This document shows positions 4,298 through 41,205 of a stretch of 64,000 nt of DNA, in pieces (the first letter of the stretch is position 1; every line of letters starts with the position of its first letter). The notes below the pieces were generated by a model. That model did no database searches. It was not told the DNA's origin and saw nothing but the letters and a program-made list of their open reading frames with translations. Made by a program: the position numbers and the translations under genes. Origin of the DNA: Spartobacteria bacterium LR76 (GTDB lineage Bacteria; Verrucomicrobiota; Verrucomicrobiia; Chthoniobacterales; Terrimicrobiaceae); contig QAYZ01000016.1 of assembly GCA_003054655.1 (NCBI GenBank), positions 1,488,001 to 1,552,000 of the forward strand, written 5' to 3'.

Positions 4298-4403
4298 TTA
4301 AAAAAGGGGGGCGTTTTCATCCTATGTTAGCCCTGCGAACCGGGATTTAAATTGCTTTGCCAAGATAAGTCATTCACACTGAAGAATTCCTTCCCACCCC
4401 CTG
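4298..4403. promoter_or_regulatory. Divergent promoter region of esterase and LacI regulator
   Basis: The 106 bases between two divergently transcribed genes must hold both promoters and probably the LacI-family operator. An A+T-rich stretch with the palindrome ATTTAAAT lies at about 4346-4353. I could not identify a convincing operator or -35/-10 pair by eye. Confidence 0.4.
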
Positions 4404-5441: not shown

Positions 5442-5528
5442 GTCGCCAGGATCACCACCCGCCTGATTGCGGACGAAGGCGGATGGCAATGCGTATTCCC
5501 TCCTCCCCCGCCGAAAGTCCGCGCTCAT

Positions 5529-8198
5529 TCACGGCAGCGCAACCGTGAGAGTCGATCCCGCCATGGCTCCGGCAGGCAGCGCGAGCTTCGTCGCCTTGCC
5601 ATCCAGCGTGACGGCGATCTCCTTGAGCAACTGCGTCGGGTCCGCTATCGCCAGCCTCCCGCCAGACTCATCGAGCATGAGCACACAGGGCTGATCAACG
5701 GCGATCACCCGGCCCGCTCCGAAACTCAAGGCCCCCGGCTGATGAAAAACAGCCTGCGTCCTTTTTAGTCCGGCATGGCGCACGGCCTGGAGCTCCCGGG
5801 TGTTTTGCAGGATCTGAACCGTCGGAGAGGCCGCCATCGCCTCGGTCTGCTCGCGGGAGATGCCAGGCAGCAGCACGTATGCGTATGTCGCATCCCTCGG
5901 CTTGTCCCCATGATTGATCCACGCCGAGAAAACCTCTGCCGTCACGGGATCGGGCTTCGCCCGGCCATTGACGAGATTCCACGCACCGGTCTGCTCCTGA
6001 AAGCCCAGACTCACGCGTTGCGGGGACGGAAAGACGTAGCCCACTCCGTCATGCCACGCCCACTTGAGATCCGGGTATTCTCGTACTCCCACGCCGGCTC
6101 TCTCCGGTTTCCCGGCGCCGGCTGCCACCATCACATCACCCTTCGCGAGACACTGGTTCACACTGGATGCCACCGGCTCCCCGTCACTGGAGATTCCGGC
6201 ACCGAGGCCGACGATCTCGTCGTCAAAATAGAACCAGCTCTTTTTCGCCTTCACTCCGTCACGATTGAGGGTCAGCACCGCCGCGCCGTATCCGCCATCC
6301 GACACTCCGCCGACGAAATCACTGTCATTCGTCACCTTCCAGTTTTTCGGCTTGAGCCGCGCTTTGTCGGTGGTCATCGGAGCGGTGACTCCCGGCAGAC
6401 GCGCCCAGTCCCAGACCGGGAAGATGTCGTCGTATTCCCGCCCCGTCAGGTACAGGAATGTCGCCCCGTCGCCGAGGTAGCCGCCGGAGAGATTCTCCGT
6501 ATTGACAACCTCCGTGGCGAGAACCCGCGCCGAATTCATCCTCGTGGAGGCGTAGTACCTCGGCCGGCGGTGCACCATGTAGTCGGAGCGCCAGAAATAC
6601 GTGCTCTGCGCCGGGATGACCGCCGCGTCCGGACGGTCGCGCTCGATGGCTGCCTGATATTGCGCGGTATGCCCGGGGTCCATCGTCTTCGCCGTTTCCA
6701 ATAGCAGCAACACCTCGCCGCCCTTGCCTGCCGGAGATCGAGGCCCGATCTGGCGTCCGCACGAGCTGATGTCGACATTGCCTTTCCAGACGACCGTGGC
6801 GAGACCGTTGAGCAGATAGCCTCGCACGACCGCCATCTTCTCCGGGCTCGCCGCCAGACTCGTCCCGCGCAGCACGGTCATCCATTGCACGGTATCCTGG
6901 GCGAAGCCCATCCCATAGTTTCCGAGCTGGAGCAGAGGCCCGTGCTGATAAAAAGAAAAGTCCGGCTGCACGCCCTCCTGGGTCGATACATCGATGTCGC
7001 CCGGCCTCCCTGATGTCTTGAAAGCCGGCCTGGTGCCGCCCGGCTGGCTGGCGATCACGACCTCCTCGAAGGCCACATCCCGGGCGCGCCGGACCAGCGC
7101 CATGTCCGAGGCGAGCAGCCCCTTGGCCAAAGCATTCGCCGCGACCCACACCCGGTTCTGCCCTGTCAGCACACCTCGTCCCCAGTGCGGCGGGCTATCC
7201 ATCACCGCACGCCCCACGATCCGGATGCCAGCCGATCGCTCCTCCGGCGTGAGCTCCGCATCCATCAGCAGCAGGATTTTCGCCAGATCGGCAGGCACGC
7301 CGATCTCGCGGTACCACCATGCGCTCGACCAATAGTCATTCCGCAGCCAGTTCCCGAGCGCCTTGTGAATCGCCGCCGACAAGGCGGCATCGCCCTTCAG
7401 CGGACTCCCCGGCATCGTGTAGGCGAGCGCCATCGCCTCGAGCCGGGCCAGATGAGTCAGCGGCTGCCAGAAGCCGCCGGTTTTGCTGGCGTAGTCAATA
7501 TCCGGCCACGCCCCCTCCGCGTTCAGCGCCGCCATCCACTCCGGCACGCGCTCGCGCTGGCGTTCCATTTCCCCCGAGCCTTTCCACTGCGCCTGTTGAT
7601 ACCCGGCAAACTGCCTCTTGATTTGATCCACCTCCGCCTGTTCTGCCGCAGAAAGCGGATTCGCCACGGCCCGATGCAGCGTCAGACCGTCCAGATACAA
7701 GACCGCGTCCGGGCTGGGTTTCATCCCCCACCCGTCCACGGTGAACATCATGGAATCGATCTTGTGCCATCCCGCCGGGTTGCCGCTCGGCTGGAAATAC
7801 GAGATCGGAATGCGCACCTCGTTCCACCCCTCCCGCTCAACGGTCACGCGGTATCCGAAGTATGAGAACCCCTGCGGGTCCGCCCGGGATACGAGTACGA
7901 TCATGAGAGGCACCGGCTTCTGGCCCGCATTGTAGATCCAGAGCGAGAGTTCCTCCGCGTCCGACCAATCATGCGGGATGTTTCCGCTGCCGACGGACTT
8001 GTTCACCAGGTGATCCTTCCACAGTCCCGATCTCCCTCCTGTTTTCACCTTCTCGCCGGAAAGCTCGATGCCTTTCCAGTCGCCCTGATCAAAACCGAGC
8101 ACCACCGCGGAGGAATCCGCCGCCCGGACGGAAGACAAAGAGGCCAGGCCCAGCGCCAGGCCGAGCAGGACGGTGACAGGAAGGGGGAGTCGATACAT
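5529..8198 (-). CDS. Polysaccharide lyase family 8-like protein (hyaluronate/chondroitin/xanthan lyase type)
   Basis: 889 residues with a signal peptide (~1-26). Residues ~30-180 are a beta-sandwich carbohydrate-binding-like region. Residues ~190-560 form an alpha/alpha toroid with PL8 hallmarks: NDYWSSAWWYREIGVP, TGQNRVW (~346, active-site Asn), FSFYQHGP (~418, active-site His), then GGYLGDGATFLYLTG (~576, active-site Tyr region). The C-terminus is beta-sandwich. PL8 enzymes cleave uronic-acid-containing polysaccharides by beta-elimination; the actual polymer cannot be told. It is the last gene of a minus-strand run beginning at the alginate-lyase-family gene and converges on the LacI gene. 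Confidence 0.85.
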   Translation of the reverse strand: MYRLPLPVTVLLGLALGLASLSSVRAADSSAVVLGFDQGDWKGIELSGEKVKTGGRSGLWKDHLVNKSVGSGNIPHDWSDAEELSLWIYNAGQKPVPLMIVLVSRADPQGFSYFGYRVTVEREGWNEVRIPISYFQPSGNPAGWHKIDSMMFTVDGWGMKPSPDAVLYLDGLTLHRAVANPLSAAEQAEVDQIKRQFAGYQQAQWKGSGEMERQRERVPEWMAALNAEGAWPDIDYASKTGGFWQPLTHLARLEAMALAYTMPGSPLKGDAALSAAIHKALGNWLRNDYWSSAWWYREIGVPADLAKILLLMDAELTPEERSAGIRIVGRAVMDSPPHWGRGVLTGQNRVWVAANALAKGLLASDMALVRRARDVAFEEVVIASQPGGTRPAFKTSGRPGDIDVSTQEGVQPDFSFYQHGPLLQLGNYGMGFAQDTVQWMTVLRGTSLAASPEKMAVVRGYLLNGLATVVWKGNVDISSCGRQIGPRSPAGKGGEVLLLLETAKTMDPGHTAQYQAAIERDRPDAAVIPAQSTYFWRSDYMVHRRPRYYASTRMNSARVLATEVVNTENLSGGYLGDGATFLYLTGREYDDIFPVWDWARLPGVTAPMTTDKARLKPKNWKVTNDSDFVGGVSDGGYGAAVLTLNRDGVKAKKSWFYFDDEIVGLGAGISSDGEPVASSVNQCLAKGDVMVAAGAGKPERAGVGVREYPDLKWAWHDGVGYVFPSPQRVSLGFQEQTGAWNLVNGRAKPDPVTAEVFSAWINHGDKPRDATYAYVLLPGISREQTEAMAASPTVQILQNTRELQAVRHAGLKRTQAVFHQPGALSFGAGRVIAVDQPCVLMLDESGGRLAIADPTQLLKEIAVTLDGKATKLALPAGAMAGSTLTVALP

Positions 8199-20417: not shown

Positions 20418-23400
20418 TTATCGCGCCGCCGCTCCCAACGGCAAAGCGGCAGTGAGGCTTTTCACCGCCGCCTGTACCCAATCGCTCTCCGGCTCCGCAT
20501 AAGGGCGGAACGTCTCCAGCGAGCCATTGTGCTCGTTGTAAAGGATGGCGCGATGAAGTCCCAACCCGCTGGCCTGCGGCGAATCAATCAGGCTCGCCGA
20601 GTCATTCGCGCCCATCTGGAAGACGACCCGCACCTCAAACTCGCCCAGCGCCTTCCGGCTCAGGAAGCGCCCAACGTTGTTAAAGGTATCGATCGACGCC
20701 AGGACGTGGATCCCGACGCTGCTTCCCTCGGAGAGCAAGGCCTTGAGCTGTTCGGCGGGCGATTGCGTGGCATCGGAGGAGAAGCTGAAGTCGTCTTCGT
20801 TGCGCAGCTTCTTGAACCGTTCGAGATGATGGATGAAGACAAAGACGGGCTCCTCCTGTCCTCCCGCCTCCCCCGCTGACCTCGCGGCCAGTTCATCGGA
20901 CAGGGCCTGCATGGCGTCCTTTACGCCGTCGTTCTGCACTATGGTCAGACGGTCTCCGAGGGCCTCGGCCAGCGCATCCAGCGTCGGCAACGATCCGCGA
21001 CCGTCCGGCGTCAGAACTACATACCGCGCTCCGCCTCCGGCATGCTGCGCAGCGAGAGCGAGCAGCGAGACGCCCAGCATGGTCGAGACGGCCTCCTCGT
21101 TCTGGCCGACGATGAGGAGATGGCTGCCGCTCTGGCTCTGAAACCCGATCTCGGTGGGGCCTTTGATGGAGTTCGGCGCTCCCAGCCAGATGCGAGCCAC
21201 AGCAGGAGCCGAAGCAGGCGGACGGACGATCACATCCTTCAGCAGCAGGTTTTCCTCAAGATCCGCCGGAGCATTGCCCTCGAAGACAATCGGCCCGGCC
21301 GCAGTCTCCCTGCGCTTTTGCGCGAGGGCGTGAATCTCATCCAGCCGAGCATCGCGCTCAGAGTCCGGCAGCCAAACCACCTGAAAGGGGCTGTTGCCCT
21401 CGATGGCTCCGGCGGCGTCATTGTAGATGCCCTCACCCGGTCGCGACAGCAGACGCGGCGCGGGGTTGTTATCATCCATGATGAGATAGGCGTCGGCCTC
21501 GCTGCATTGCAGGGCGACCCGAATCACCATCTGCCCGAGGGTCGTGCGAGCAAGCGTATAAGCTCCTCCCAAGGTCTGCGACCCGAGCAGCACATGAATG
21601 CCAAAGGCGCGGCCCTGCCGGACGATGCGGTCAAACAGGAGGGATGCGGTCTGGGCGATCTCGTCGTCCTCGACGAAGAACTCCTGGAACTCGTCAATAA
21701 TCAACAGGGTACGGGGCACCGGTTCCTTGCCTCCCGCGCGTTTATAACCCGCGATGTCCTGCACGCCGAGCTTGCGGAACATGTCGCCGCGGCGCTTCAG
21801 CTCGAGGTCGACCCGCTGGAGCACGCTCAACCCAAACTCGCGGTCGCTCTCGATCGCGACGACTTTCGCATGAGGCAGGCGATGCTCCGCGTAGCACTTG
21901 AACTCCACGCCCTTCTTGAAGTCGATCAGGTAAAACTCGACCTGGTCCGGGCTGCACCACAGCGCCAGGTTCGTGATGATGACATGAAACAGCGTCGACT
22001 TGCCCGACCCGGTCTTTCCGGCAAAGAGTGCGTGCTGGCGGGTTCCCTTGCCGATCGAGAGATACTGGAGCTTCGTCGCCCCGGTGCGGCCGATGGCGAC
22101 CTTGAGCTCGCTCGTGGTATCGCCGGTCCACATTTCCTCCCCATCCGGCGCGATCTGGGAAAAGGGCACCTCGACGCGATTGGAGTCAATACTGCTTTGG
22201 CCGATCCGGTGCAACAGCTCGACCGCCAATTCCTTCCCCGGCGGCGGGCCGAGCGTCACTACGGCATCCGGCTGGATATTTTCCTCCGGGAAGATCCAGC
22301 GGTTGTGATCGCGGCGGAGGCAGATGGCGTTTCTGCGCAGTTCCTCCGGTACGAGTCCGTCCGGCATGGCCTGTCGGCGGTCCCAATGCAGAAAGGTAAA
22401 GACGCCGCAGCGCGGCCCGGACGCCACGATACTCTGGAGACGCTTCGCCGCGGTCTCGCTGAAATTCGCCGGGAAATCCGCCACCACCAGGAAGTGATAT
22501 TTCTCCGCCACGCTGCCCGCCTGGGCGTTGTACTCCGTGATGGTCTCGTACTCATTGCGGAGATACATCTGGATCACCTTTTCGATATGCTCATTGAGCT
22601 CCGCGAGGCGCTCCTCGATCTGCTCGCGCTGGGTCCAGATGCGGCGGTTGATCAGCGATTCCTCGAAATCCGTCAGGTGCATGAGGCCGGCGAAATTCTG
22701 CCCCAGCCCGACGGGATCGAGGATCGTGAAGCTCAGCTTCCCCGGCGGAGTGTGCGTCAGCAGGCGCAGGATGACATTGTTGAAAGACGCCTCCGCCTCC
22801 GCCGCCCCGGACTCGGAGGTTTCAAAAAGCAGAGAACCCTGTGATGGGAAAGACAGGGCGAGCGGAATGTCGATCGTCAACGATTCCGGCATCGCAAGCC
22901 TGGGATCACGCGGATGCGGTGTGGTGGAAAGATCCACCTCCAGCCCACCGACCCGGATGGCGGGGCTGAATGTCGCCGGCGGTGTCCAGCTCTCCACGGT
23001 CGCCGCATCCCAGGGGGCGGAGGTCTCGGCAACCGCCTGCTGCATCGCCTCGACGTCTCCTGCGAGGGGCGTGACAGCTCCGTCCCAGGCCGCCCTGAGT
23101 TCCGTCCAGCGCGCCTCCTCCTCGACCTGCGAGGCCGAGCTTTCTTCGGCATATGCGGTGGTTATCTGAGCGCGCCACGGCTCGACCCGGGCCGCAATCT
23201 CCCTCTGCCGATCCTCATAGAGCTGCCGGTTGCTCTCCAGGCTGCGCGCAAGCCACTCCTCATTGCGCTGTAACAACCGCGGAGCCTGCGCCTCGATCTT
23301 GGCCCGGATCTCCACGGCAAAACGGCTCTCGATCGCCTCACCCTGCTCCCACTTTTCCGTAAGCTCGGCGCAAAGCTGATCGTAGTCCCGCTGCAATCTC

Positions 23401-24308
23401 TCACGCTTCTCCTGGTATTGACTGGTGGCGACTTCCCGGCAAAGCAGGGCAAGGCCCTGCGCTCGCACAAGCGCGGCAGCCAATGCCTCCGCCGCGACCT
23501 GCGCCTGCCGTCGTCCTTTCTGATGCAGGACAAAGATGGCCCCCAGCAAAACGATGTCCGCCGCGGTCGAGCCAAGAGTCAGCAGCGGCGACGAGCCGGT
23601 GAGACAGGCCACAACCGGCACGGCCACCAGCAAAGGGATCAGGAGCAGAGGAGGCAAAAGACTGAAGTATCTCGGAATCTCGATTTTCCGAAATTCAGCC
23701 AGACGATCCTCCGTTTCCCGATAAGCCTGTTGCAGATTTGCAAAGAGGACAAATCTGTCCTGAGGCTCTGCGGCCAGTCCGGCAGGGTCCGCCTTTATCA
23801 GCTTTCCAAAACTCCAATAGCCGCGAAAAGCTCCGCGCACCTTGCGCTCCAGCGCAGCCACCGCCGCCTGCCATCCGCCCAGCTTGGAGGAATAGTCAGC
23901 AAATCCCTCATCCGCAGCCTTCAATTCGAGCGGCAGGCTCCGCGTGGCGCGGAAGTGCCTCATTTGCAGATTGCCCAGCCAGCGTTCCTTGGCCGCCCTG
24001 GCTTGCTCCTGGAGATTTTCCAGTCCCGAGCGGTGCGCCCGCTCGATTCGCGTCCGGCGTGATGCCGCACGCTGCTCGACCTCCACCTTTCTCTCTTCGA
24101 AGAATGTGTCGGCGCGGGCCGTTTCCGTGGCCAGCCAGGTCTCCAGACGAGCCAGCTCCTCTCGGAACTTCCGCGTCTCCGCCACCCGACGTGCGCTGAT
24201 CTCCCGGTCGAGGGCGCTTTCCTTCCGGGCAAAATCCTCCGCCACCGCCTTCAGGGAATGCGCCAGCCTCAGGCTGCGCTGTACTCGCAAATCCATGGAA
24301 CTATTCAC
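20418..24308 (-). CDS. FtsK/SpoIIIE-type membrane ATPase, type VII-secretion-like
   Basis: 1296 residues from GTG at 24308 (ATG at 24296 is an alternative). Residues ~1-210 are coiled coil; ~215-262 are two membrane helices; ~265-450 are a second coiled coil. The main ATPase has Walker A AGKTGSGKST (~762-770) and Walker B TLLIIDEFQEFF (~866). A second ATPase-like domain (from ~1060) has lost the P-loop lysine (GQNEEAVST) and the acidic Walker B (VFVFIHHLERF). Tandem active and degenerate domains recall EccC/EssC of type VII secretion; FHA domains are absent. Small WXG-like proteins lie directly upstream in the same operon. Confidence 0.88.
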   Translation of the reverse strand: MNSSMDLRVQRSLRLAHSLKAVAEDFARKESALDREISARRVAETRKFREELARLETWLATETARADTFFEERKVEVEQRAASRRTRIERAHRSGLENLQEQARAAKERWLGNLQMRHFRATRSLPLELKAADEGFADYSSKLGGWQAAVAALERKVRGAFRGYWSFGKLIKADPAGLAAEPQDRFVLFANLQQAYRETEDRLAEFRKIEIPRYFSLLPPLLLIPLLVAVPVVACLTGSSPLLTLGSTAADIVLLGAIFVLHQKGRRQAQVAAEALAAALVRAQGLALLCREVATSQYQEKRERLQRDYDQLCAELTEKWEQGEAIESRFAVEIRAKIEAQAPRLLQRNEEWLARSLESNRQLYEDRQREIAARVEPWRAQITTAYAEESSASQVEEEARWTELRAAWDGAVTPLAGDVEAMQQAVAETSAPWDAATVESWTPPATFSPAIRVGGLEVDLSTTPHPRDPRLAMPESLTIDIPLALSFPSQGSLLFETSESGAAEAEASFNNVILRLLTHTPPGKLSFTILDPVGLGQNFAGLMHLTDFEESLINRRIWTQREQIEERLAELNEHIEKVIQMYLRNEYETITEYNAQAGSVAEKYHFLVVADFPANFSETAAKRLQSIVASGPRCGVFTFLHWDRRQAMPDGLVPEELRRNAICLRRDHNRWIFPEENIQPDAVVTLGPPPGKELAVELLHRIGQSSIDSNRVEVPFSQIAPDGEEMWTGDTTSELKVAIGRTGATKLQYLSIGKGTRQHALFAGKTGSGKSTLFHVIITNLALWCSPDQVEFYLIDFKKGVEFKCYAEHRLPHAKVVAIESDREFGLSVLQRVDLELKRRGDMFRKLGVQDIAGYKRAGGKEPVPRTLLIIDEFQEFFVEDDEIAQTASLLFDRIVRQGRAFGIHVLLGSQTLGGAYTLARTTLGQMVIRVALQCSEADAYLIMDDNNPAPRLLSRPGEGIYNDAAGAIEGNSPFQVVWLPDSERDARLDEIHALAQKRRETAAGPIVFEGNAPADLEENLLLKDVIVRPPASAPAVARIWLGAPNSIKGPTEIGFQSQSGSHLLIVGQNEEAVSTMLGVSLLALAAQHAGGGARYVVLTPDGRGSLPTLDALAEALGDRLTIVQNDGVKDAMQALSDELAARSAGEAGGQEEPVFVFIHHLERFKKLRNEDDFSFSSDATQSPAEQLKALLSEGSSVGIHVLASIDTFNNVGRFLSRKALGEFEVRVVFQMGANDSASLIDSPQASGLGLHRAILYNEHNGSLETFRPYAEPESDWVQAAVKSLTAALPLGAAAR

Positions 24309-24513
24309 AATCGGCTTTCACCTTTCTCAGTAAGGCGTGGATTTCCTCGATGGCCTCCGTCGCACGGATGATGTGCTGAGGCAACTCCTCCAGATAAGTC
24401 TCTTGAAACTCGCGGCCCTTGGCGTCCTGCCAGCGCTCAGCCGTTCGCTCCCACTCCAGCATGAGATCCTTGGTGGCCTGCACGAGACGGGCTGATGCGG
24501 TGACGACACTCAT
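24301..24513 (-). CDS. Small helical WXG100-like protein (70 aa)
   Basis: 70 residues, all predicted alpha-helical. Around residues 26-41 it reads RWQDAKGREFQETYL, which matches the W-x-D...F...Y turn seen in the 90-residue WXG100-like protein of the same operon (SWQDQEHEKFAEEF). Its ATG overlaps the upstream coiled-coil gene (ATGA) and its end overlaps the FtsK-like gene by eight bases. It is shorter than a standard ~100-residue WXG protein. The likely role is a secreted or partner subunit of the ATPase; this is inference. Confidence 0.7.
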   Translation of the reverse strand: MSVVTASARLVQATKDLMLEWERTAERWQDAKGREFQETYLEELPQHIIRATEAIEEIHALLRKVKADCE

Positions 24514-25031
24514 GATTCTGGAGGCGGGTTGGGTGCCACAGGGGCGGCCGGGCGTACGGCACCGGCCTCCATGTAAGCCTCAAGCGCTTTTTCAATTTGG
24601 AGCAGATAAGCCAGTCCCTTGGGCATCTCGCGATCGAGGACACCTCTCAGAGACTCCAGCTTTTTCAGCAACGGAGAGACCTGCGACTCATACACCCGGA
24701 ACCACCGCTTGACTGCAAGGAGCTTGGCCTCCGCCTCCTGCAGCGCGGCGCGGGCGCGATTGACCGCCAGCATCTGGAGGGTATTGGAGTCCTTCATCGA
24801 GGACAGGCGGGAATTCATCAAATCCGCCTCCGCCTGGTCGAGCACACGCTTGCGCCAACGAATCTCTCCCTCCCAGTGCATCCGCTGCTCCGTTTGCAGC
24901 CAGACCCGCGTCCGGCGCACCTCGTCGCCGACCTCATCGAGGCGGGCATGCGCCTGGTTGATATAGACAATCAAGTGGGAGCGAAACTCCTCTATCGCCT
25001 CCACCGAACTGACTCTGGCCTGGTCCGCCAT
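24510..25031 (-). CDS. Coiled-coil protein of the WXG100/FtsK operon
   Basis: 173 residues, almost entirely helical with heptad spacing and many Trp/Arg (VWLQTEQRMHWEGEIRWRKR) in the middle, ending in a Pro/Ala-rich tail (RPAAPVAPNPPPES). I do not recognise a family name. No signal peptide or membrane helix. It lies four bases after the WXG100-like gene and overlaps the 70-residue gene, so all four genes are one translation-coupled unit. It could be a chaperone, a long helical secreted subunit or a linker to the ATPase coiled coils. Confidence 0.7.
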   Translation of the reverse strand: MADQARVSSVEAIEEFRSHLIVYINQAHARLDEVGDEVRRTRVWLQTEQRMHWEGEIRWRKRVLDQAEADLMNSRLSSMKDSNTLQMLAVNRARAALQEAEAKLLAVKRWFRVYESQVSPLLKKLESLRGVLDREMPKGLAYLLQIEKALEAYMEAGAVRPAAPVAPNPPPES

Positions 25032-25035
25032 GCGA

Positions 25036-25308
25036 TTACCTTTGATCCAGATACTCCTCGATCCGCTGAGCCTTGCGCAGGAGGTACGGCGTGTGGTTCT
25101 CCGAGATTTCCACGAATTTCTTCAGCGCCTTCATCGTGACGATGAACTCCTCGGCGAATTTCTCATGCTCCTGGTCCTGCCAGGAACCTCCCAGCGAAGC
25201 AAACTGGGCCTGCAACGCTGAGGCCTTGGTCGTCACGTCATCATTGAAGCGTTTGAGTTCGCGAGCAAATCGCCGAACCTCCTCGGGGTCCATGATTGCT
25301 TGAGCCAT
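25036..25308 (-). CDS. WXG100-family-like protein (90 aa)
   Basis: 90 residues from ATG at 25308; the longer open frame upstream is rejected because this start has a GGAG site 13 bases ahead and gives the canonical size. The sequence is two helices joined by SLGGSWQDQEHEKFAEEF, a W-x-D variant of the WXG turn at residues ~41-43. ESAT-6-like proteins are exported as dimers by an FtsK/SpoIIIE ATPase, and such an ATPase is the last gene of this operon. It is the first gene of the operon; the promoter should lie between 25309 and 25506. Confidence 0.75.
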   Translation of the reverse strand: MAQAIMDPEEVRRFARELKRFNDDVTTKASALQAQFASLGGSWQDQEHEKFAEEFIVTMKALKKFVEISENHTPYLLRKAQRIEEYLDQR

Positions 25309-25506: not shown

Positions 25507-25566
25507 TGGTACCGGCGGTGGGACTCGAACCCACACTCCCATTTCTGGAAAACGGATTTTAAGTCC
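25507..25566 (-). tRNA. 3' fragment of tRNA-Leu(UAA): att site of the genomic island
   Basis: Read on the minus strand this holds the anticodon loop CTTAAAA (anticodon UAA), a class II variable arm, a perfect T-arm (GTGGG-TTCGAGT-CCCAC), the 3' acceptor strand and an encoded CCA ending at 25507. The D-arm and 5' acceptor half are missing: the sequence to the right is A+T-rich and unrelated. It is therefore a partial tRNA, as left by integration into a tRNA 3' end. The orientation predicts the intact tRNA at the far right end of the island, outside this window. Confidence 0.85.
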
Positions 25567-25640: not shown

Positions 25641-26960
25641 ATGGCTCGAACACCGAAATTGCCGAACGGAGTCTCCGTTTACCCAGACCTGGCTGGTAAC
25701 CGAAAATTCTGGCGCGTTCGCCTCGGCGCAAAATTCCTGGGCAAGGGGCGTAAGCCCGAAAAAAGGGCGTTCTCCAGTCACGCCGAGGCAGTAAATTGGA
25801 TCAAAGAACGCCAGGCAGAGCTCCACCCCTGCAAAGCTGATGCAGAGAAGACAAGACTCACGGAGAGTCAGATCGACGAAGCCAAGGTCGCGATAGCGCG
25901 ACTTCTCAATGCTGGGGGCGAAGGAGTTTCCCTCGTCGATGCCGCCGATGCATGGATTCGTCACGTTCTTCCGACCCTGAGGTCAGAAACCGTAGCCAAC
26001 GCCATCGCGAAACTCATCGAGGCCAAGGCACGAAAGCTGAAAAGCGAACGCAGTAAGCGGCATCTTGCAGAACTCAAAAACAAGCTGAAGCGCCTCTTCC
26101 GAACTTTCGAGACTGAAAAGATGGCTGCCATCGAGCCAAAACATTTCGAAACCATGCTGTATCGCGAAGACGCCAAGGGAAATCCCCCCAGCGATTCACA
26201 GATCGTTAAACGTGCACGTTATGCAAAAATCCTTTTCAGATACTCGACAGCGCAAGGATGGATGACGAACGACAAAAAACCGTTCGCTGGAGTGGAATTA
26301 CCAGAATTGATTGGCGACGAGGTCGTCGTACTATCTCCGGCGCTTATTGCCCGTCTGCTCTGGAACGCGGATCAAAAGTACCCTCTCATTCTTCCAGCGT
26401 TGGCTATCAAGATATTCTCAGGCATTCGACAGACGGAGCTCTATCGTCTCAGGTGGGAAGGAGTTGCAGACGATCAAATAACCGTACTGGCTGCACATTC
26501 CAAGACCGGGCGTAAACGTGCGATTACGATCCATCCTACACTCGCAGAATGGCTCAAGATATGCCGCAAAGATTCAGGACCGGTTTTTGATTGCGAACCT
26601 CAGCGGAAAGATCGAGTTGCCGTCTGGTACTCCATATTCGGGCAACTGCAAAAATCAGCTGGCATCACCGAATGGCCGCAAAACGCACTTCGTCATACCT
26701 TCGGAAGCTACCATTACGCCCTTCACAAAAACGAAAACCTGACCGCAGCCGAAATGGGAAATTCGCCAGCGATCGTAAAGGCCAATTATATAACTGCGCC
26801 CAAAAAACAGGAAACACTCGGATTCTGGAGGCTTATTCCAGGTGTAGCAGAAGCCGTCGCACAGACACAGATTGAACGCGATACCGCAAGCTTCGGCTCC
26901 AGCGAATCGACCACCTCAAGCGAATTGCCATGCGACGAGTACGAGCCTCCTTTCGATTGA
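25641..26960 (+). CDS. Tyrosine recombinase (island integrase)
   Basis: 439 residues: N-terminal arm and core-binding region, then a phage-integrase catalytic domain from ~240. Active-site candidates are R263 (SGIRQTEL), Lys in HSKTGRKR, R351-H352 (ALRHTF) and nucleophile Y383 (KANYI). The usual His three residues before the second Arg is Asn, and the usual GH box is GN, so two conserved positions are altered. It lies 75 bases from the tRNA-Leu fragment and points into the island, the normal arrangement for a tRNA-targeting integrase. Confidence 0.9.
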   Translation: MARTPKLPNGVSVYPDLAGNRKFWRVRLGAKFLGKGRKPEKRAFSSHAEAVNWIKERQAELHPCKADAEKTRLTESQIDEAKVAIARLLNAGGEGVSLVDAADAWIRHVLPTLRSETVANAIAKLIEAKARKLKSERSKRHLAELKNKLKRLFRTFETEKMAAIEPKHFETMLYREDAKGNPPSDSQIVKRARYAKILFRYSTAQGWMTNDKKPFAGVELPELIGDEVVVLSPALIARLLWNADQKYPLILPALAIKIFSGIRQTELYRLRWEGVADDQITVLAAHSKTGRKRAITIHPTLAEWLKICRKDSGPVFDCEPQRKDRVAVWYSIFGQLQKSAGITEWPQNALRHTFGSYHYALHKNENLTAAEMGNSPAIVKANYITAPKKQETLGFWRLIPGVAEAVAQTQIERDTASFGSSESTTSSELPCDEYEPPFD

Positions 26961-33832: not shown

Positions 33833-34104
33833 CGAGAACTAAAAATATTATAAACCAGTGAAAATATAACTAATGGAATGCTGCCCCATTCGATGAATAA
33901 TGGCAACCACCACCATTGAGTAATCCCTTCGATTGGAAACGTAAAGACCGCCAAAGCTCCAATCAGCCCCCCAACAAAGGGAATAACCGATGTAAATGTT
34001 TTTTTACGGATATAATTGTAAAAAAATATTCTCCAGTTAGTGAAAAAGAACACCAAAAATATCGAGAATAGAAATACCGCCAAAATCCAAGAAAAGATTT
34101 TCAT
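33823..34104 (-). CDS. Small membrane protein, putative immunity protein for Rhs 1
   Basis: 93 residues with about three to four hydrophobic helices (ILAVFLFSIFLVFFF; GGLIGALAVFTF; WWWLPLFIEWGSIPLVIFSL). The start overlaps the Rhs stop (ATGA). Small polytopic proteins with a WWW-P-L..D/E.GS.P block often follow Rhs genes with the VTRWG..GL..GDWVM tip found here, so it is the expected cognate immunity protein. Markedly A+T-rich compared with the Rhs core. Confidence 0.75.
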   Translation of the reverse strand: MKIFSWILAVFLFSIFLVFFFTNWRIFFYNYIRKKTFTSVIPFVGGLIGALAVFTFPIEGITQWWWLPLFIEWGSIPLVIFSLVYNIFSSRKK

Positions 34105-37100
34105 TGCTTTGGATCATATACTCGCTGGTTCAGTCGTTCCTTCAACAAGAGAGTAGCCGCGTTTTCATTTTCAGTGCCAACATCCCCTTTTTGAGGCGCT
34201 CTAACTGCGGATTGCGGGACAGAGCTCGTTTCTCCAGATCTGAAGGGAGCAGTCTTATTATTTCCTGTCATCCAATTTGGCTGCCATTTTCCAGACATGA
34301 TATAATTCCACCAAGTTTTACCTCCTTGCATCACCCAATCACCTGCTTTTAAGCCTTCGCGACCCCACCGTGTAACAAGAACCTCGCCAGGGCCCATAGC
34401 AGCGGCTCCCCTTAAAACAGTCAACTCACCAACACCTGCCACAATCGCCAAGCCTGTAAGTCCAGCAGAAGTCGCTCTCAGAGAATCCTTAAGAAGCAGT
34501 CCGCCCATATCTTCGTATTTCGAATCATCTAGTTCCCTAGAGTCGACATAAGAAAATCTTCCGGGCTTACCAGAAAGTTCGGCCGCGTCATTCAGTAATT
34601 TTGCGAATTGATTAATGCCTTGCGCCGAAGCTTCAATCCGATCAATAGCGCCTTGAGCATTTTCGATGCGAGCTCCATGCGTTTTATACGCTTGATCCAG
34701 CAATCTCTGCTTCGACCTTTCATTCAATCCCTTTGAATTTGAGATTTGTTTTAGTTTTCGCTCAAGTTGTTTTCGTTCTTTAGCTATTTCATCTTCATAA
34801 TCTTTTATTTTTTTTAATCCCTCCGGATCAAAATTAGTCCAAGGATTCTGCACCACGTAGGCGTAGAGGTTCGGCCCGTCAACGAAGCCCGCCGGGTCCT
34901 TGCTCAGGAATGCCCCTGTCTCCAGATCGCGGAACCGGAACCCCTCATTGGCATACCCCGGCACGTCCTCGTCCTTCGTATTGCTCTTCTGTCGATCCAG
35001 CGTCGCGCCGGTCTCCGTCACCCTCTTACCGAACGCCTCGTACGTGGCCTGGTAAGTGATATTGCCCGTTGCGTCCGTCTTGGCCGTCACGTCTCCGCGC
35101 CGGTTGTAGTGCGTGAAGCTCGGCACTCCCGCCCTCTCGGTGTACAGGATGCCTCCCACTCCTCCGCCCCAGTCGGAGCCTCGCACGTAATCCACGCTCG
35201 GCAGCCCGTTCTCGAACTCCCGCACCTCCGTGCCTCCGCTGAACACCGCCTTCGTCACGGTCGCGTTGTAGGCCAGCTCCACCCGGCGCGTCCGGTAATC
35301 GTACCCCCAGCCGTAGGTCCCGCTTCCGCCCAGGCTCGTCTTGGCCAGCGCGATGAGACGGTTTTCGTTGTCCCATGTGAACGTGTCGGTATTGATCCCC
35401 TCCGTCCGCGTCAGACGGTTGCCGTTGTTGTCGTACGTATAGCTCACCGTCCGGCTTGACCCTTCGGTAAACGACGTAAGCTGGTTGCGGCTGTTGTAGC
35501 TGTAGCTCGTCAACACTCCGCCCTTGGTCATCGTCTCCCGGTTGTGCGCGTTGTCATAGCTGTAGAGCGTCGTTCCCGCTCCGCTGCCCGTCACCGCTTC
35601 CTGCGTGAGCCGGTTGATCGCGTCGTAGGTGTTGGTCACCACGCGGTCCATGCTCGCGTTTGAATACGCCTCCGTCACCTGCTTCACGTTGGCCGCTGGA
35701 TCGTAGGCGTAGGTGTAGCTCGAGAGCGGCAGCCCTCCGCTGCCTCGCGTGCTCACCAGCGTCATCGTGCGGTTGGCCGCGTCGAATGTGCTCGTCGTCG
35801 CGTCCCCATTGGGCAGCGTCTTCGTCAGGATGTTGCCATCCAGATCGTACGCGTACGTCGTCACCAGCGGCCCCTGCGTGAGGGTGCTCAGCCGGTTCTG
35901 TGCGTCATAGGCCGAGATCAGCGGCACGCTCAGGCCTCCGTAGAGCACGGACGTGCGGTTGCCCGCCAGGTCGTACTTGTACTGGTGGGTCAACCCTCCG
36001 CTGGTTTCCGTCAACTGCCGCTTCAGCGCGTCGTAGGTGTAACCCACATCGGCCTTGCCCGCCTTGCTGGCATCCGGCTCGGTCACCGTCAGCAGGTTGC
36101 CCGTCGCGTCGTAGCTCATCACCCGGTTGTCCTGGCTGCGGCCCACGTAGTTGACCGTCGTCAGGCGATGTCGCAGGTCGTACCCGTACTCGGTGCGATG
36201 GCCCATGGCGTCCACCCGGGCCGTCTTGTCCACCGCGTTGTATTGGAACGTCGTCGTCTTGTTCCCCGCGTCCTTCACCGTCAGGTTGCGCTTCAACCCG
36301 TCGTACGTAAACTCCGTCCGCTGGTTCTTCCCGTCCACGATGGCCGTGCGGTTGCCCGCGAAGTCGTATTCGTTGCGCACCACGATGCTCTCCGCGTCGG
36401 TCGTTGTCACCAGGCGGTTCAGCTTGTCGTAGGTATTCAGCGTTTCGTGTCCGTTTGGGTCGGTCACCTTTGTCGCATTACCGTTCCTGTCGTATTCCGT
36501 CAAGGTCGTCGGCCTCTGGCTTCCTCCTCCGTAGATCGCCACGCTCGGCTGCTCGACCTTCGTCACCCGGTTGGCCGCGTCGTACGTCGTGTCGGTTTCG
36601 TTGCCCCGGGCGTCCGTGGTTTTCACCACGTTGCCCACGGCGTCGTAGGACCAATGCAAGGTCGGGGTGCCCGTACCGGGCCGCGTCTCGGTCAGCTTCC
36701 GGTTGCGGTTGTCAAAGGTGTACGTCCACTCGTACCCCAGCGGGTTGATCGTCTTGATCACGTTGCCCGCGTCGTCGTACTGGGTCTGCGTCACCGCCCG
36801 CGCCGTCACGCCCAGACCGTTATCCACCTCGGGGCTCGACACCTTCACCGGGCGGCCCGCGTCGTCGTACTCCGTCAGCGTGTCGTTGCCCAGTTCGTCC
36901 TCCACCTTCCACTTCAATCCCGTCGACGTGTAATACGTGTGCGTCGCCGTCAGGTCCGGCCAGATCGTCGACGTCTCGCGGTTCAGCGCGTCGTAGGTCT
37001 TTTGCGTGATGCGCGGCACCAGCGTCGTGGTCAGCGGGTCGTATTCCTTCACCAGATTGCCCACGTCATCGTACTCGTACTTCGTCACCGCGTAGACTCC

Positions 37101-39692
37101 GTCCTGGTACTCCGCCTTTTTCTCGATCGGCCGGTAGGTCGCATCGTACGTCGTCAACGTCTCGTACCCCAGCGGGTCCGTCACCTTCACCGGCATGAAA
37201 TCCCGCCCAAACTGCAACCCGCCCGAGTTCTCGCCGTACTCAAAGGTCGTTTCCTTCCCGTATGGGTCTGTCGTCTTCACCAGGCGATTGAGCCCGTCGT
37301 ACGCCATCGTCGTCACCCACCCGTTGGGGGATTTCACCGACGTTTTCGCTCCCAGTCCGTTGTACGTGGTTTCCGTCACCAGATCCGCCGCGCTCAACTC
37401 ATGGTCTCCATCCATGTCCCTTGCCTGCTTGACCACGCGGTTCAACGAATCATACACGCGCAACGTCGAGCGCCCCAACTCGTCGTCTTCGCGAACCTTG
37501 TTGCCACGAGCATCGTAGTACAGGCGCTTCACGCTGGACCCAGGCAAGTGGGTTTCCGTCAAACGATTCTGTCCGTCATAGACGAAACTTGTAACATTGC
37601 CGTTCGGGTCCTCGCTCGTCAGCTTGTTGTTGTTCGCGTCGTACGTGTATTCGGAAACTCGTTCATGTCCCGCCGAACCAACCTTTTCCTTCAGGATATT
37701 CCCCGTAATCGGCTCAAGTTGATAGCTGGTGACGAGGTCTTTTGACCAGAATGGATCTGCCCCAAGTCGCTTCGCTATCGTCTTCTTGCTGACGACACCC
37801 TTGAAGTCCGGGCTGTACTCGTAATCTGTCTGTTGAACAATAGGCGCGGTCTCGCTGTCACTGGCCTTAACGATCTGACTGGTACGGTTGCCGGTCACCG
37901 GATCAATGGTATCCTCCGTAACCCGGCCCTCCTCATCGATCGTCTTGTTCATCACGCGCCATGTCGGGTCGTAGGTGAACGTCTTCGTTTTACCAAGCCC
38001 GTTGGTCTGACTCGTAACATCTCCAGCCTTGAAAACAGGGAGATACGGGATCAACGCCGATGGCATCCACGGCATGCTGCTGAGATAATCGAAATCATCA
38101 TCATAAGCGAACGTAGTCGCCGCTGTGACGCCGAGGTCTTGAAAGCTCTTCAGCGCATTACCGGCCGTTGGCTCAAATTTAGCCACCATCTCCCCCCCCT
38201 CTGGCGTCGTCACTGTAAGGGTTCGATACGCGATCTGAAACTTAACCTTTGAGGCTGCTATCGGCGTGTTGGACATCAGCGGCCCAAGCATGGAATACGC
38301 CTCCACCAAACCATCTGTGAAATTATAGCTCCAGTCCTTGCCCTCAACGTCCTTGACATCCGTCTTTCTCTCCCCGGCAGCGGACATGCTTCCGTCTAGT
38401 TTCCTCTCGATCCAGGTTCTGGACCCATTAATGAAACTCGCCAATTTTCCGTCCGGTTGCGTGACGCTCACAATATTCCGGGCATTTCCTGAAGTCCGAT
38501 ACCAATTGCCGTTCCTCAACGAAAACCGACTACGATCGAGCGCGTACTGAAAGGCCCACGTGTTGCCCAACTGATCCTGAATAGATGTCAGGTCGAAATG
38601 AGCAAAATAACTGCCAAACCCAGCATCCGGGGTGGCGTCCGGCTCGATGACAAATTCGCATGCATACTGCGTTGGCGTCCCTCCACCACGCGTCACGGAT
38701 GCCAGGATAGGCCACCCACTAAACTGCGGGTACCTTGGATCAGGCATCGTTGAGTACGCATACGAGATCGAGTTTCCCCGGGGATCGGTGATTTGTGTGA
38801 CTCGATTATCCGCGTTTTTGGTGATGGAGATCGTCTTTTCCCTGATCGTTATCGTCGAGGGAATCAACTGTTCCTCTTTATGCTCTTCCGGATCTGGATC
38901 CACATAAGTACGCGCTTCAACCGTGCCAAAGCGATCTTCGACCTTGGTCAGTCTTGCCCATGCTTCCGCACCACTCTCGGTATTTCGTGCAACGTTTGTT
39001 AACTCGAAGGTCAACGTCGTCTTGAACTTCTTTCTGAAAATGAACTTCGCCCGTACGCCTTCTTGAAAAACCGCCTCCAAAGTTGTCTTAAAAGTTTCCT
39101 GACAATTCCGATCGCTGTTGAGGGGAAAGTATTTAAGCCCCCCTTCAGCATACATGAACGCGAGAAAACGGTAGCTCGCTCCATCGTTGTCCACGACGGT
39201 AGCAACCTGAATTCCATCCTCCCCGGAGAAATTAATATATGAGCAAATATTTGACTGCCACCCAGGGCCGAATGGCCGGTCAGGCCTATACCTGATATCA
39301 AGACCCTTGTTACTAAAAATCTCTGTACTCCAGTTCCGGCGCACACTCAAAGCCATATCGGCACCGGGCATCGGAACATATACATCCGTCACCTGATGAG
39401 TCAGTGTCTGGGTAAATGGATCCACATAGGTCTCCTCCGGAGACTGATCTGTTTCCTCCTGCTGTTGCGGCTTTTCATCAGGAATAGGGAATCCATTGAG
39501 TCCGACCTTCCGATATTTCGCTCCTGTTCCCTCGTTGACGGACTGATAGAGCGGACCATCACCTCCCCCTCCGCCTTCGTCCTCACACTTTTCAGGTTCT
39601 TGATCAGACGACTCCTCCGCAGGCAATGAGCGACTAAACATCGCTCCAAGCATCAGCAGGCAAAATAGCAAAACGTTAATTCGGCTTTTCAT
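34101..39692 (-). CDS. Rhs/YD-repeat polymorphic toxin 1
   Basis: 1863 residues from ATG at 39692, which gives a signal peptide (SRINVLLFCLLMLGAMFSRS). Shared leader block KYRKVGLNGFPIPDEKP follows, then DUF6531-like N-domain and many YD repeats forming the Rhs cocoon up to the core end (YANEGFRFRDLETGAFLS, then DPAGFVDGPNLYAYV and DPEGL, ~1626). The C-terminal tip (~1627-1863) has a helical part, then VTRWGREGLKAGDWVMQGG and WWNYIMSGKWQPNW, a tip type known from other Rhs proteins whose chemistry I cannot name. The tip is A+T-richer than the core, suggesting exchange. Overlaps the companion gene by 17 bases. Confidence 0.9.
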   Translation of the reverse strand: MKSRINVLLFCLLMLGAMFSRSLPAEESSDQEPEKCEDEGGGGGDGPLYQSVNEGTGAKYRKVGLNGFPIPDEKPQQQEETDQSPEETYVDPFTQTLTHQVTDVYVPMPGADMALSVRRNWSTEIFSNKGLDIRYRPDRPFGPGWQSNICSYINFSGEDGIQVATVVDNDGASYRFLAFMYAEGGLKYFPLNSDRNCQETFKTTLEAVFQEGVRAKFIFRKKFKTTLTFELTNVARNTESGAEAWARLTKVEDRFGTVEARTYVDPDPEEHKEEQLIPSTITIREKTISITKNADNRVTQITDPRGNSISYAYSTMPDPRYPQFSGWPILASVTRGGGTPTQYACEFVIEPDATPDAGFGSYFAHFDLTSIQDQLGNTWAFQYALDRSRFSLRNGNWYRTSGNARNIVSVTQPDGKLASFINGSRTWIERKLDGSMSAAGERKTDVKDVEGKDWSYNFTDGLVEAYSMLGPLMSNTPIAASKVKFQIAYRTLTVTTPEGGEMVAKFEPTAGNALKSFQDLGVTAATTFAYDDDFDYLSSMPWMPSALIPYLPVFKAGDVTSQTNGLGKTKTFTYDPTWRVMNKTIDEEGRVTEDTIDPVTGNRTSQIVKASDSETAPIVQQTDYEYSPDFKGVVSKKTIAKRLGADPFWSKDLVTSYQLEPITGNILKEKVGSAGHERVSEYTYDANNNKLTSEDPNGNVTSFVYDGQNRLTETHLPGSSVKRLYYDARGNKVREDDELGRSTLRVYDSLNRVVKQARDMDGDHELSAADLVTETTYNGLGAKTSVKSPNGWVTTMAYDGLNRLVKTTDPYGKETTFEYGENSGGLQFGRDFMPVKVTDPLGYETLTTYDATYRPIEKKAEYQDGVYAVTKYEYDDVGNLVKEYDPLTTTLVPRITQKTYDALNRETSTIWPDLTATHTYYTSTGLKWKVEDELGNDTLTEYDDAGRPVKVSSPEVDNGLGVTARAVTQTQYDDAGNVIKTINPLGYEWTYTFDNRNRKLTETRPGTGTPTLHWSYDAVGNVVKTTDARGNETDTTYDAANRVTKVEQPSVAIYGGGSQRPTTLTEYDRNGNATKVTDPNGHETLNTYDKLNRLVTTTDAESIVVRNEYDFAGNRTAIVDGKNQRTEFTYDGLKRNLTVKDAGNKTTTFQYNAVDKTARVDAMGHRTEYGYDLRHRLTTVNYVGRSQDNRVMSYDATGNLLTVTEPDASKAGKADVGYTYDALKRQLTETSGGLTHQYKYDLAGNRTSVLYGGLSVPLISAYDAQNRLSTLTQGPLVTTYAYDLDGNILTKTLPNGDATTSTFDAANRTMTLVSTRGSGGLPLSSYTYAYDPAANVKQVTEAYSNASMDRVVTNTYDAINRLTQEAVTGSGAGTTLYSYDNAHNRETMTKGGVLTSYSYNSRNQLTSFTEGSSRTVSYTYDNNGNRLTRTEGINTDTFTWDNENRLIALAKTSLGGSGTYGWGYDYRTRRVELAYNATVTKAVFSGGTEVREFENGLPSVDYVRGSDWGGGVGGILYTERAGVPSFTHYNRRGDVTAKTDATGNITYQATYEAFGKRVTETGATLDRQKSNTKDEDVPGYANEGFRFRDLETGAFLSKDPAGFVDGPNLYAYVVQNPWTNFDPEGLKKIKDYEDEIAKERKQLERKLKQISNSKGLNERSKQRLLDQAYKTHGARIENAQGAIDRIEASAQGINQFAKLLNDAAELSGKPGRFSYVDSRELDDSKYEDMGGLLLKDSLRATSAGLTGLAIVAGVGELTVLRGAAAMGPGEVLVTRWGREGLKAGDWVMQGGKTWWNYIMSGKWQPNWMTGNNKTAPFRSGETSSVPQSAVRAPQKGDVGTENENAATLLLKERLNQRVYDPKQ
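34821..37333. repeat. Rhs core repeat, copy 1 (2.5 kb)
   Basis: Colinear with 43627-46139 at a constant offset of 8806 and no net insertion or deletion. The encoded protein is nearly identical, while DNA differences in the parts compared by eye are mostly at third codon positions. Outside these limits the two Rhs genes diverge sharply. Confidence 0.85.
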
Positions 39693-41205
39693 TAGGTTTC
39701 GGCAGTAATTTCTTTCTGGCGGCAGCCATCGCGGAAGCAACATCCGCAGGGGAGGCGGAAAACGACGGAAACGCAGGCGCAAGCTGCAACTCGCCCGACT
39801 CATTGGGCTCTAAAAACACGGACTGCTTCATCGTCTTGTCCATTACAACGATCCCAAAGTCTTTGCCGGCAAGGGTCCGTTTGATCAGCGTCTTGCCGTC
39901 TTGGGTCTCGTAGTTCAGCGTCCATGGTCCCTCAGTCCGCTCGACCAGCCCTCCATCCGCGGCGTATTTCTCCTGCCACTTCACGGCATCTCCCACCTTA
40001 CATCCCTTAACCACCGATCCACTGGGATCGTACTGACAAAAATACTCGCCTTGGCCATCCCGCCTCCGGATCAGGCGTCCCAACTCGTCGTACGTCCATC
40101 GAACAACCTTCACATCGGTCCCGTTCAGAGTCTCTTTCAGGTCTCGAATCTTTCCAAACAACGGCCCTCTGGAAACGAAGTACCTCCTGCTGACTATGGT
40201 CCCATCGGTCTTGCGGTACTCAGTCAGTCCCCGCACACTATCGGCGGAATAAGTCTCAAACCTACCCGATGGATTCGTCCTCTTGACCGTCGAAATGCCT
40301 TCTTTTCCCTCAATGGAATAGCTCCAATCCCCCGCTTCCTTCAACGACCCGGTAGCGGCATCCCACCGGAACTCTTTGGGATCATCACGGGTCGAGGCAA
40401 ACTTCATCACGTAGCTACCGTCTGTCTCAAGAATCACCCGGTAGTCCTGCTGGATTCGCAGAGCTTGGGCAAATGCCGAACTGGTTGGCGACTTTCCTTC
40501 GGCAGGAAGAATGGTTATCGATGCCACATTCCAGTCATAACCTGAGATCAAGGCTCCCGGCCCACCGGGTAGTACCCGAGGAATCTGCTGCCACTCCAGC
40601 ACGTATCGCCCGGTCGCGGTTGACAGGGATACGGCCTGAACACTTGATCCACTGTAATCAAACTTCAGAAGATCTCCTCCCGCCGCATTCCTGATCGCTA
40701 AAAATCGGCTGGCTTCCCAGATCCACTGAAACTGCGCGCCCTTGTCAGTGGTCAACTCCTTGATCTTCCCCCCAACATAGCGAATTTTCCACCCCGCGAC
40801 CTCCACGACCATCTCGGATCCGCTGGTTGATCGAGCAACGTAGAGGTCGTCAAGCGATGTGTAGACGCCGTCTTCGCCCTTCTTCCGCCGAAGATAAATC
40901 GCCCTGCCACTGATTGAATTCAGGAGGAGATCCGTCTCACTGACACGCACCAGAGTCGACTCGACCAATGGAAACAACCAGTGCGAGCCGAAAACCCGGT
41001 TCCCCTCGGGTTGCCCTCGAAAACACAACCGCAACGGCAAGGCGTTCCCATCACCAAGTGATAACTTTTCCTGGTCTTGCCAAATGATCAACCTCCCAGC
41101 GTCATCCGAATATCCCAGAAACGTATGAGGTCTCGAAAGATCCGGCGCAGCGGCTTGCAGAGATGCCACGACGCCAAGAACCGCTACCACTAAGAAGAAC
41201 CTCAT
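39676..41205 (-). CDS. Rhs companion protein 1 (secreted YD-like propeller)
   Basis: 509 residues with a signal peptide (MRFFLVVAVLGVVASLQAA). The rest is a repeat-rich beta-structure with YD-like turns (WRYD/ WTYDELGRLIRRRDGQGEYF). It is homologous to the proteins at 48507 and 31807: RPHTFLGYSDD, NALPLRLCFRG, RVFGSHW, SGRAIYLR. It lies between the small CEPP protein and the Rhs toxin and overlaps the Rhs start by 17 bases. It may be a chaperone, plug or surface anchor for the toxin; no enzymatic motif is visible. Confidence 0.8.
   Translation of the reverse strand: MRFFLVVAVLGVVASLQAAAPDLSRPHTFLGYSDDAGRLIIWQDQEKLSLGDGNALPLRLCFRGQPEGNRVFGSHWLFPLVESTLVRVSETDLLLNSISGRAIYLRRKKGEDGVYTSLDDLYVARSTSGSEMVVEVAGWKIRYVGGKIKELTTDKGAQFQWIWEASRFLAIRNAAGGDLLKFDYSGSSVQAVSLSTATGRYVLEWQQIPRVLPGGPGALISGYDWNVASITILPAEGKSPTSSAFAQALRIQQDYRVILETDGSYVMKFASTRDDPKEFRWDAATGSLKEAGDWSYSIEGKEGISTVKRTNPSGRFETYSADSVRGLTEYRKTDGTIVSRRYFVSRGPLFGKIRDLKETLNGTDVKVVRWTYDELGRLIRRRDGQGEYFCQYDPSGSVVKGCKVGDAVKWQEKYAADGGLVERTEGPWTLNYETQDGKTLIKRTLAGKDFGIVVMDKTMKQSVFLEPNESGELQLAPAFPSFSASPADVASAMAAARKKLLPKPNEKPN

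What the first reader, a model, noticed from the sequence alone, without database searches (positions are those of the whole stretch)
20418..25308. Minimal WXG100 plus FtsK/SpoIIIE operon in a Gram-negative-type genome
Four tightly coupled genes encode a 90-residue WXG100-like protein, a coiled-coil protein, a 70-residue WXG-like protein and a 1296-residue membrane FtsK/SpoIIIE ATPase. Known type VII systems pair WXG100 proteins with such an ATPase but also carry EsaA/EssA/EssB or EccB/D/E-type membrane genes, none of which is here. This looks like a compact, perhaps undescribed, WXG100 export system in Verrucomicrobiota.
Basis: partly seen in the sequence, partly recalled or inferred. Interest (0 to 1): 0.78.

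Follow-up and report, generated by a model that had tools for sequence, protein, structure and literature searches.

The report
Four-gene WXG100 and ATPase module
A real, strongly conserved set of four genes in Verrucomicrobiota and Planctomycetota encodes two small ESAT-6-like proteins, a long helical hairpin protein and the one-motor ATPase that goes with them, a stripped-down relative of type VII secretion that was noted in one line in 2012 but, as far as I could find, never tested.

Summary
In detail: four tightly packed minus-strand genes (25308 to 20418). The 90-aa protein is a true WXG100 (Pfam 2.6e-10), nearest to H. pylori HP0062. The 70-aa protein is a shortened WXG100-like hairpin with W-x-D in its turn (AlphaFold pLDDT 94). 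The 173-aa protein is a long toxin-free helical hairpin. The ATPase has a coiled coil, two TM helices and three FtsK-type domains, with a Walker A motif only in the middle one. It falls outside both FtsK/SpoIIIE and EccC/EssC. The same four genes, in the same order, occur in 71 of 75 complete loci from Verrucomicrobiota, Lentisphaerota and Planctomycetota; every WXG100 is exactly 90 aa.

The system is not undescribed: a footnote in Zhang et al. 2012 (PMC3482391) names solo WXG proteins with an ATPase whose middle domain alone is active, in planctomycetes and verrucomicrobia. New here are the fixed four-gene composition, the TM hairpin (lost in one Prosthecobacter clade), the toxin-free hairpin, and a Helicobacter relative in which a coiled-coil nuclease toxin and SUKH immunity gene hold that position.

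Most likely it is a T7SS-like ATPase that handles its own hairpin proteins. Export is unproven and the missing channel argues against it. New variant of a known kind.

The parts
25036..25308 (-). WXG100 protein, 90 aa, W43-Q-D45 in the turn; N-terminus MAQAIMDPEEVRRFA
   Evidence: Pfam WXG100 2.6e-10 over cut-off; profile best matches in PDB HP0062 8e-8 and EsxB 3e-7; 73/73 homologues exactly 90 aa
24510..25031 (-). CC: 173-aa antiparallel helical hairpin protein with Pro/Ala-rich tail, no toxin domain
   Evidence: AlphaFold2 pLDDT 93, helices 2-76 and 80-157; no significant fold match, best E 0.04 to generic coiled coils; no Pfam family
24301..24513 (-). W70: 70-aa shortened WXG100-like protein, W28-Q-D30 in the turn, near-C-terminal Cys69-Glu70
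   Evidence: AlphaFold2 pLDDT 94, helix 3-27, turn 28-30, helices 31-69; top PDB fold matches are mostly WXG100 proteins, TM 0.71-0.77 for several but E > 1; family HMM finds Caballeronia WXG100 at 5e-7
20418..24308 (-). EssC/EccC-like ATPase, 1296 aa: coiled coil, TM hairpin 217-260, coiled coil, three FtsK-type domains, Walker A GKTGSGKST at 764 only in the middle domain
   Evidence: PF01580 7.9e-31; Walker motifs; TM; tree; closest solved EccC

Best explanation
It is a lineage-specific form of the 'solo WXG' or mobile T7SS-like module: an FtsK/EssC-type ATPase (hexamer inferred), tied to the inner membrane by a TM hairpin, whose dedicated clients are three helical-hairpin proteins (WXG100, the shortened WXG-like W70, and the long hairpin CC). 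By analogy with T7SS, the single active middle ATPase domain pulls or remodels a complex built from these hairpins. In related operons the CC position holds a coiled coil fused to a nuclease toxin with an immunity gene, so the ancestral job was probably to move or deploy toxins. In the PVC bacteria (Planctomycetota, Verrucomicrobiota, Lentisphaerota) the toxin is absent and the module has become a fixed chromosomal one. Shown: gene content, conservation, predicted folds of W70 and CC, motif pattern, kinship. Inferred: partnership, ATP-driven movement, membrane topology. Not shown: export.
For: Fixed order in 71/75 loci and strong purifying selection, WXG100 strongest. WXG subfamily and ATPase subfamily travel together: in 72,556 plasmids the WXG100 finds only the two proteins that sit beside an ATPase of this same subfamily, ignoring canonical Esx proteins. 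The ATPase aligns from its first to third domain with Caballeronia, Rhodococcus and Deinococcus members (first to second with Helicobacter) but only over FtsK-type active domains with EccC/EssC/SpoIIIE; the PVC clade has support 98/99 and stands apart from both. Helicobacter operon: WXG100, coiled-coil + WHH/colicin-DNase nuclease, SUKH immunity, 77 aa, ATPase. TM in 75/79 near-full ATPases. Literature precedent.
Against: No EssB/YukC in the genome and no other membrane protein in the operon. Three Prosthecobacter-clade ATPases have lost the TM hairpin yet keep the ATPase with W70, and the non-PVC relatives have no convincing TM, so membrane translocation by the ATPase cannot be obligatory. 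No C-terminal YxxxD/E signal is seen in WXG100 or CC (by eye). Only one WXG100 over cut-off in each of nine genomes and no WXG-toxin over cut-off.
Confidence: 0.5

Rival explanations
1. An intracellular stress or anti-invader module: the ATPase and coiled-coil/WXG proteins form a sensor or effector scaffold at the membrane or in the cytoplasm; nothing is exported.
For: Relatives sit in TerY-P/CoCoNuT operons (Caballeronia: VWA, CARF, PP2C, kinase, AAA) and next to TerD genes (Rhodococcus); CoCoNuT authors note missing TMs and suggest a mechanism different from EssC; TM loss tolerated in one clade.
Against: In the PVC bacteria no gene family recurs consistently beside the operon, so no defence-island pattern; no PADLOC hit for the three small proteins.
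Confidence: 0.3
2. A DNA-translocating FtsK-type system, with the hairpin proteins as accessory factors.
For: FtsK_SpoIIIE domain; PADLOC SspH/HerA hits limited to the active domain.
Against: Tree separates it from FtsK/SpoIIIE and the genome has its own FtsK; no FtsK gamma or DNA-binding domain found in the Pfam and NCBIfam scans; constant WXG100 partners point to T7SS kinship.
Confidence: 0.1
3. A still-working export system that uses a separate, unlinked inner or outer membrane channel and secretes CC or unlinked substrates.
For: TM-anchored ATPase in 75/79; W70-ATPase and WXG-CC apparently separate in some genomes, so unlinked parts are possible.
Against: No candidate channel identified; no WXG-domain toxins over cut-off in nine genomes.
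Confidence: 0.1

Closest known systems
Solo WXG / 'mobile T7SS' with ATPase of three HerA/FtsK domains, middle one active (Zhang et al. 2012, PMC3482391, Table 1 footnote 6)
   Same: Solo WXG protein, three FtsK-type domains with only the middle Walker motif, verrucomicrobia and planctomycetes named
   Different: The passages read do not mention the second WXG-like protein, the long hairpin protein, the TM hairpin or the fixed four-gene order; called mobile, whereas this form was not found on plasmids
WXG100/EssC-like insert of Type III-A CoCoNuT/TerY-P loci (PMC11090510; compare Caballeronia L126)
   Same: WXG100 plus second WXG-like protein, coiled-coil protein, ATPase with active middle domain and N-terminal coiled coil
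   Different: There the coiled-coil protein carries a nuclease domain, the ATPase has no TM, and the genes sit between VWA genes; here toxin-free, TM-anchored, stand-alone
H. pylori HP0062-HP0066 and Helicobacter plasmid operon (L129)
   Same: Closest solved WXG100 is HP0062; same ATPase subfamily in L129
   Different: L129 has a WHH nuclease and a SUKH immunity gene between WXG100 and the 77-aa gene
T7SSa/T7SSb (ESX, Ess/Yuk)
   Same: WXG100 pairs with an FtsK-type ATPase
   Different: No EssB in the genome, none of the other canonical membrane genes in the operon; ATPase similar only over FtsK-type active domains; only middle domain has Walker A

Membership tests
WXG100 (PF06013) | Profile match above curated cut-off (90-aa protein) | tested here: met
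   P0001 40.9 bits vs 27.3; TIGR03930 at 29.9 bits is below its 44.85 cut-off
WXG100 (PF06013) | W70: profile match above cut-off | tested here: not met
   No Pfam WXG100 match; TIGR03930 only E=0.011. WXG-like, not filed as a member
WXG100 (PF06013) | W70: helix-turn-helix with W-x-G/D in the turn | tested here: met
   AlphaFold turn at W28-Q-D30; fold matches to WXG100 proteins rank top but E-values > 1
T7SSb (Ess/Yuk) | EssB/YukC present | tested here: not met
   0 matches in the genome
T7SSb (Ess/Yuk) | EsaB/YukD encoded with the system | tested here: not met
   Only YukD-like hit over cut-off is on another contig, beside E1-like, JAB-like and E2-like genes
T7SSb (Ess/Yuk) | EsaA and EssA present | not tested
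   Not searched genome-wide; no such gene in the operon by inspection
T7SSa (ESX) | EccB, EccD, EccE membrane proteins | not tested
   Not searched genome-wide; none in the operon by inspection
EccC/EssC ATPase | Score over the EccC/EssC equivalog cut-offs | tested here: not met
   113.6 vs 509 bits and 90.7 vs 778 bits
FtsK/SpoIIIE cell-division translocase | Groups with FtsK/SpoIIIE in a tree | tested here: not met
   own FtsK is a separate gene
Solo-WXG three-domain ATPase module (Zhang 2012) | Three FtsK-type domains, only the middle one with Walker A | tested here: met
   outer two domains recognised by sequence and alignment with relatives, not by a structure
Solo-WXG three-domain ATPase module (Zhang 2012) | Mobile element association | tested here: inconclusive
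   No plasmid covers 80% of the ATPase; no consistent flanking genes; patchy presence, 22/388 and 41/294 genomes

The most novel reading that the evidence does not exclude
A minimal, toxin-free, chromosomally fixed secretion or membrane-remodelling machine in PVC bacteria, in which one ATPase and three helical hairpin proteins do a housekeeping job that is not warfare, derived from a mobile toxin-delivery module.
Probability: 0.25. Interest if true: 0.75.

Novelty: new variant of a known kind. Interest (0 to 1): 0.45.

Why it matters
It gives a fixed parts list for a very small recurrent WXG100-ATPase set in diderm bacteria, conserved over three phyla, with a natural loss of the membrane anchor in one clade. 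That makes an open question testable: can an FtsK-type ATPase with WXG100 partners work without the T7SS membrane channel, and does it export anything.

Tried and rejected
Cell-division FtsK or SpoIIIE: rejected by tree and by a separate own FtsK. Defence-island gene: no consistent neighbour family in about 85 loci; PADLOC hits limited to the FtsK domain. CC as a hidden toxin: tails of all 78 CC proteins are short and of low complexity. WXG/W70 kinship by hhalign on the small alignments alone: inconclusive, probability 8%; structure and deeper HMM used instead. CC/WXG kinship: none. Sigma-54 promoter upstream: 0 sites against 0.2 expected in 74 loci, although a few loci have an NtrC-type regulator about 100-280 bp upstream. 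W70 C-terminal Cys as a by-product of the overlapping GTG start: rejected, as Cys persists where it is written TGC. tRNA scan of the window: nothing.

Full report
Observation. Four minus-strand genes at 25308-20418 encode 90, 173, 70 and 1296 residues. Genes 2/3 and 3/4 overlap; the ATPase start GTG lies inside the last codons of the 70-aa gene. dN/dS against the same-genus copy is 0.04 (WXG100), 0.08, 0.08 and 0.09.

What the proteins are. The 90-aa protein is a WXG100 (Pfam 2.6e-10); its family profile finds HP0062 of H. pylori first, then EsxB structures. The 70-aa protein has no profile match over cut-off, but its model (pLDDT 94) is helix, turn, helix with W28-Q-D30 in the turn; Foldseek ranks CFP10-ESAT6, T. 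curvata EsxA-EsxB, EsxEF, HP0062 and EsxB among the top, with TM 0.71-0.77 for several but E-values above 1, as expected for a short hairpin; the HMM of 80 homologues finds the Caballeronia WXG100 at 5e-7 in a 23-sequence test set. The 173-aa protein is an antiparallel helical hairpin of about 75 residues per arm, pLDDT 93, with no significant fold match. The ATPase has a coiled coil, a TM hairpin (217-260), a second coiled coil and three FtsK-type domains; only the middle has GKTGSGKST and LLIIDE. Its best solved relatives are EccC and YukB, over the active domain.

Distribution. A scan of the species-genome collection returned 80 loci, nearly all Verrucomicrobiota, Lentisphaerota and Planctomycetota by record title; in 71 of 75 loci with room, all four genes stand in the same order and strand. 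All 73 WXG proteins found are exactly 90 aa. In samples the ATPase family occurs in 22 of 388 genomes of the window's phylum and 41 of 294 of the phylum of a Phycisphaerales carrier (a few of these are partial matches or distant paralogues). The window genome has one WXG100 over cut-off, as does each of eight other carriers. Exceptions: L061 and L024 have W70-ATPase without WXG-CC beside them; in the genome of L061 a WXG-CC pair lies elsewhere, which suggests two linked pairs.

Kinship. On the active domain the PVC clade (98/99) is separate from EccC/EssC and from FtsK/SpoIIIE (long branches, so the exact order among relatives is unsure). Beyond that domain it aligns with plasmid-borne ATPases of Rhodococcus, Caballeronia, Deinococcus and Helicobacter. 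Caballeronia: VWA, WXG100, 436-aa coiled-coil protein, 113 aa, 76 aa, ATPase, CARF, VWA, PP2C, kinase. Rhodococcus: ATPase, 314-aa protein with a coiled-coil N-terminus, 73 aa, WXG-like 87 aa, then TerD. Helicobacter: WXG100, coiled-coil + WHH/colicin-DNase nuclease, SUKH immunity, 77 aa, ATPase. The window's WXG100 finds only the Caballeronia and Helicobacter ones among 72,556 plasmids.

Mechanism. The constant association of three hairpin proteins with one ATPase subfamily, and the toxin-immunity pair at the CC position in Helicobacter, support a T7SS-like motor handling hairpin clients. Homology of CC with the coiled-coil part of the toxin proteins was not established by sequence (weak scores only); the correspondence rests on position and coiled-coil nature. 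Export is not shown. Against it: no EssB, no channel gene in the operon, no YxxxD/E signal by eye, and a Prosthecobacter clade (L056, L061, L088) whose ATPase has lost the TM hairpin, nested inside TM-bearing ones.

What is known. Zhang et al. 2012 (PMC3482391) noted solo WXG domains with a three-domain ATPase, middle one active, in planctomycetes and verrucomicrobia among others, and called them mobile versions of T7SS. The CoCoNuT paper (PMC11090510) describes the TerY-P-linked version with two WXG100 proteins and a coiled-coil nuclease, without TMs, and cites Anantharaman et al. 2012 for stand-alone copies (that paper was looked up under a DOI recalled from memory and was not held). PMC4978471 calls WxG + FtsK a minimal T7SS in H. 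pylori. So the kind is known; the PVC four-gene form with its TM-anchored ATPase and toxin-free hairpin was not found described in the searches made, which cover open-licence papers only.

Noticed in passing
window about 25507-25566 (minus) and 25641-26957 (plus): Just upstream of the operon lies a sequence resembling the 3' half of a tRNA (by eye...acttaaaatcc...gggttcgagtcccaccgccggtacca), next to a tyrosine integrase gene (Pfam 2.2e-7); ARAGORN calls no tRNA. It looks like the border of an integrated element that does not include the operon.
   Followed up: partly
window 34101-39803 and 42937-48510 (minus): Two very large genes (1900 and 1857 aa), each preceded by a gene of about 490-510 aa; the first is an RHS-repeat protein (Pfam 5.8e-86). 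The second was only scanned for defence families.
   Followed up: partly
L142 8719-14019 (G000:C14 near 115991): The same genome carries what looks like a ubiquitin-like conjugation operon: YukD-like ubiquitin-fold protein (1e-14), E1/ThiF-like, JAB-like, FHA and E2-like proteins (identified from sequence by eye apart from YukD).
   Followed up: partly
window 24304-24309; loci L013-L100: The 70-aa protein ends in Cys-Glu in 59 of 80 homologues and has a near-terminal Cys in most others, even where the codon is TGC and cannot serve the overlapping GTG start. Role unknown.
   Followed up: yes
L056, L061, L088: Prosthecobacter-clade ATPases have lost the TM hairpin (model positions about 160-280 replaced by about 57 residues) while the ATPase and W70 stay linked.
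   Followed up: yes
L015 4802-6184, L080 1446-2930 and a few further loci: NtrC-type sigma-54 response regulators lie about 100-280 bp upstream of the operon on the same strand; no sigma-54 promoter site found.
   Followed up: partly
L020 (G039:C41) 3268-8072: A second, distant FtsK-type ATPase grouping with a Deinococcus plasmid ATPase, with small W-x-D proteins beside it: apparently another branch of the same kind of module.
   Followed up: partly
L125 14444-15388: Rhodococcus plasmid coiled-coil protein beside the ATPase has an extra C-terminal domain (resembles a ParB-type fold by eye, no Pfam match), again hinting at a toxin in that position.
   Followed up: no
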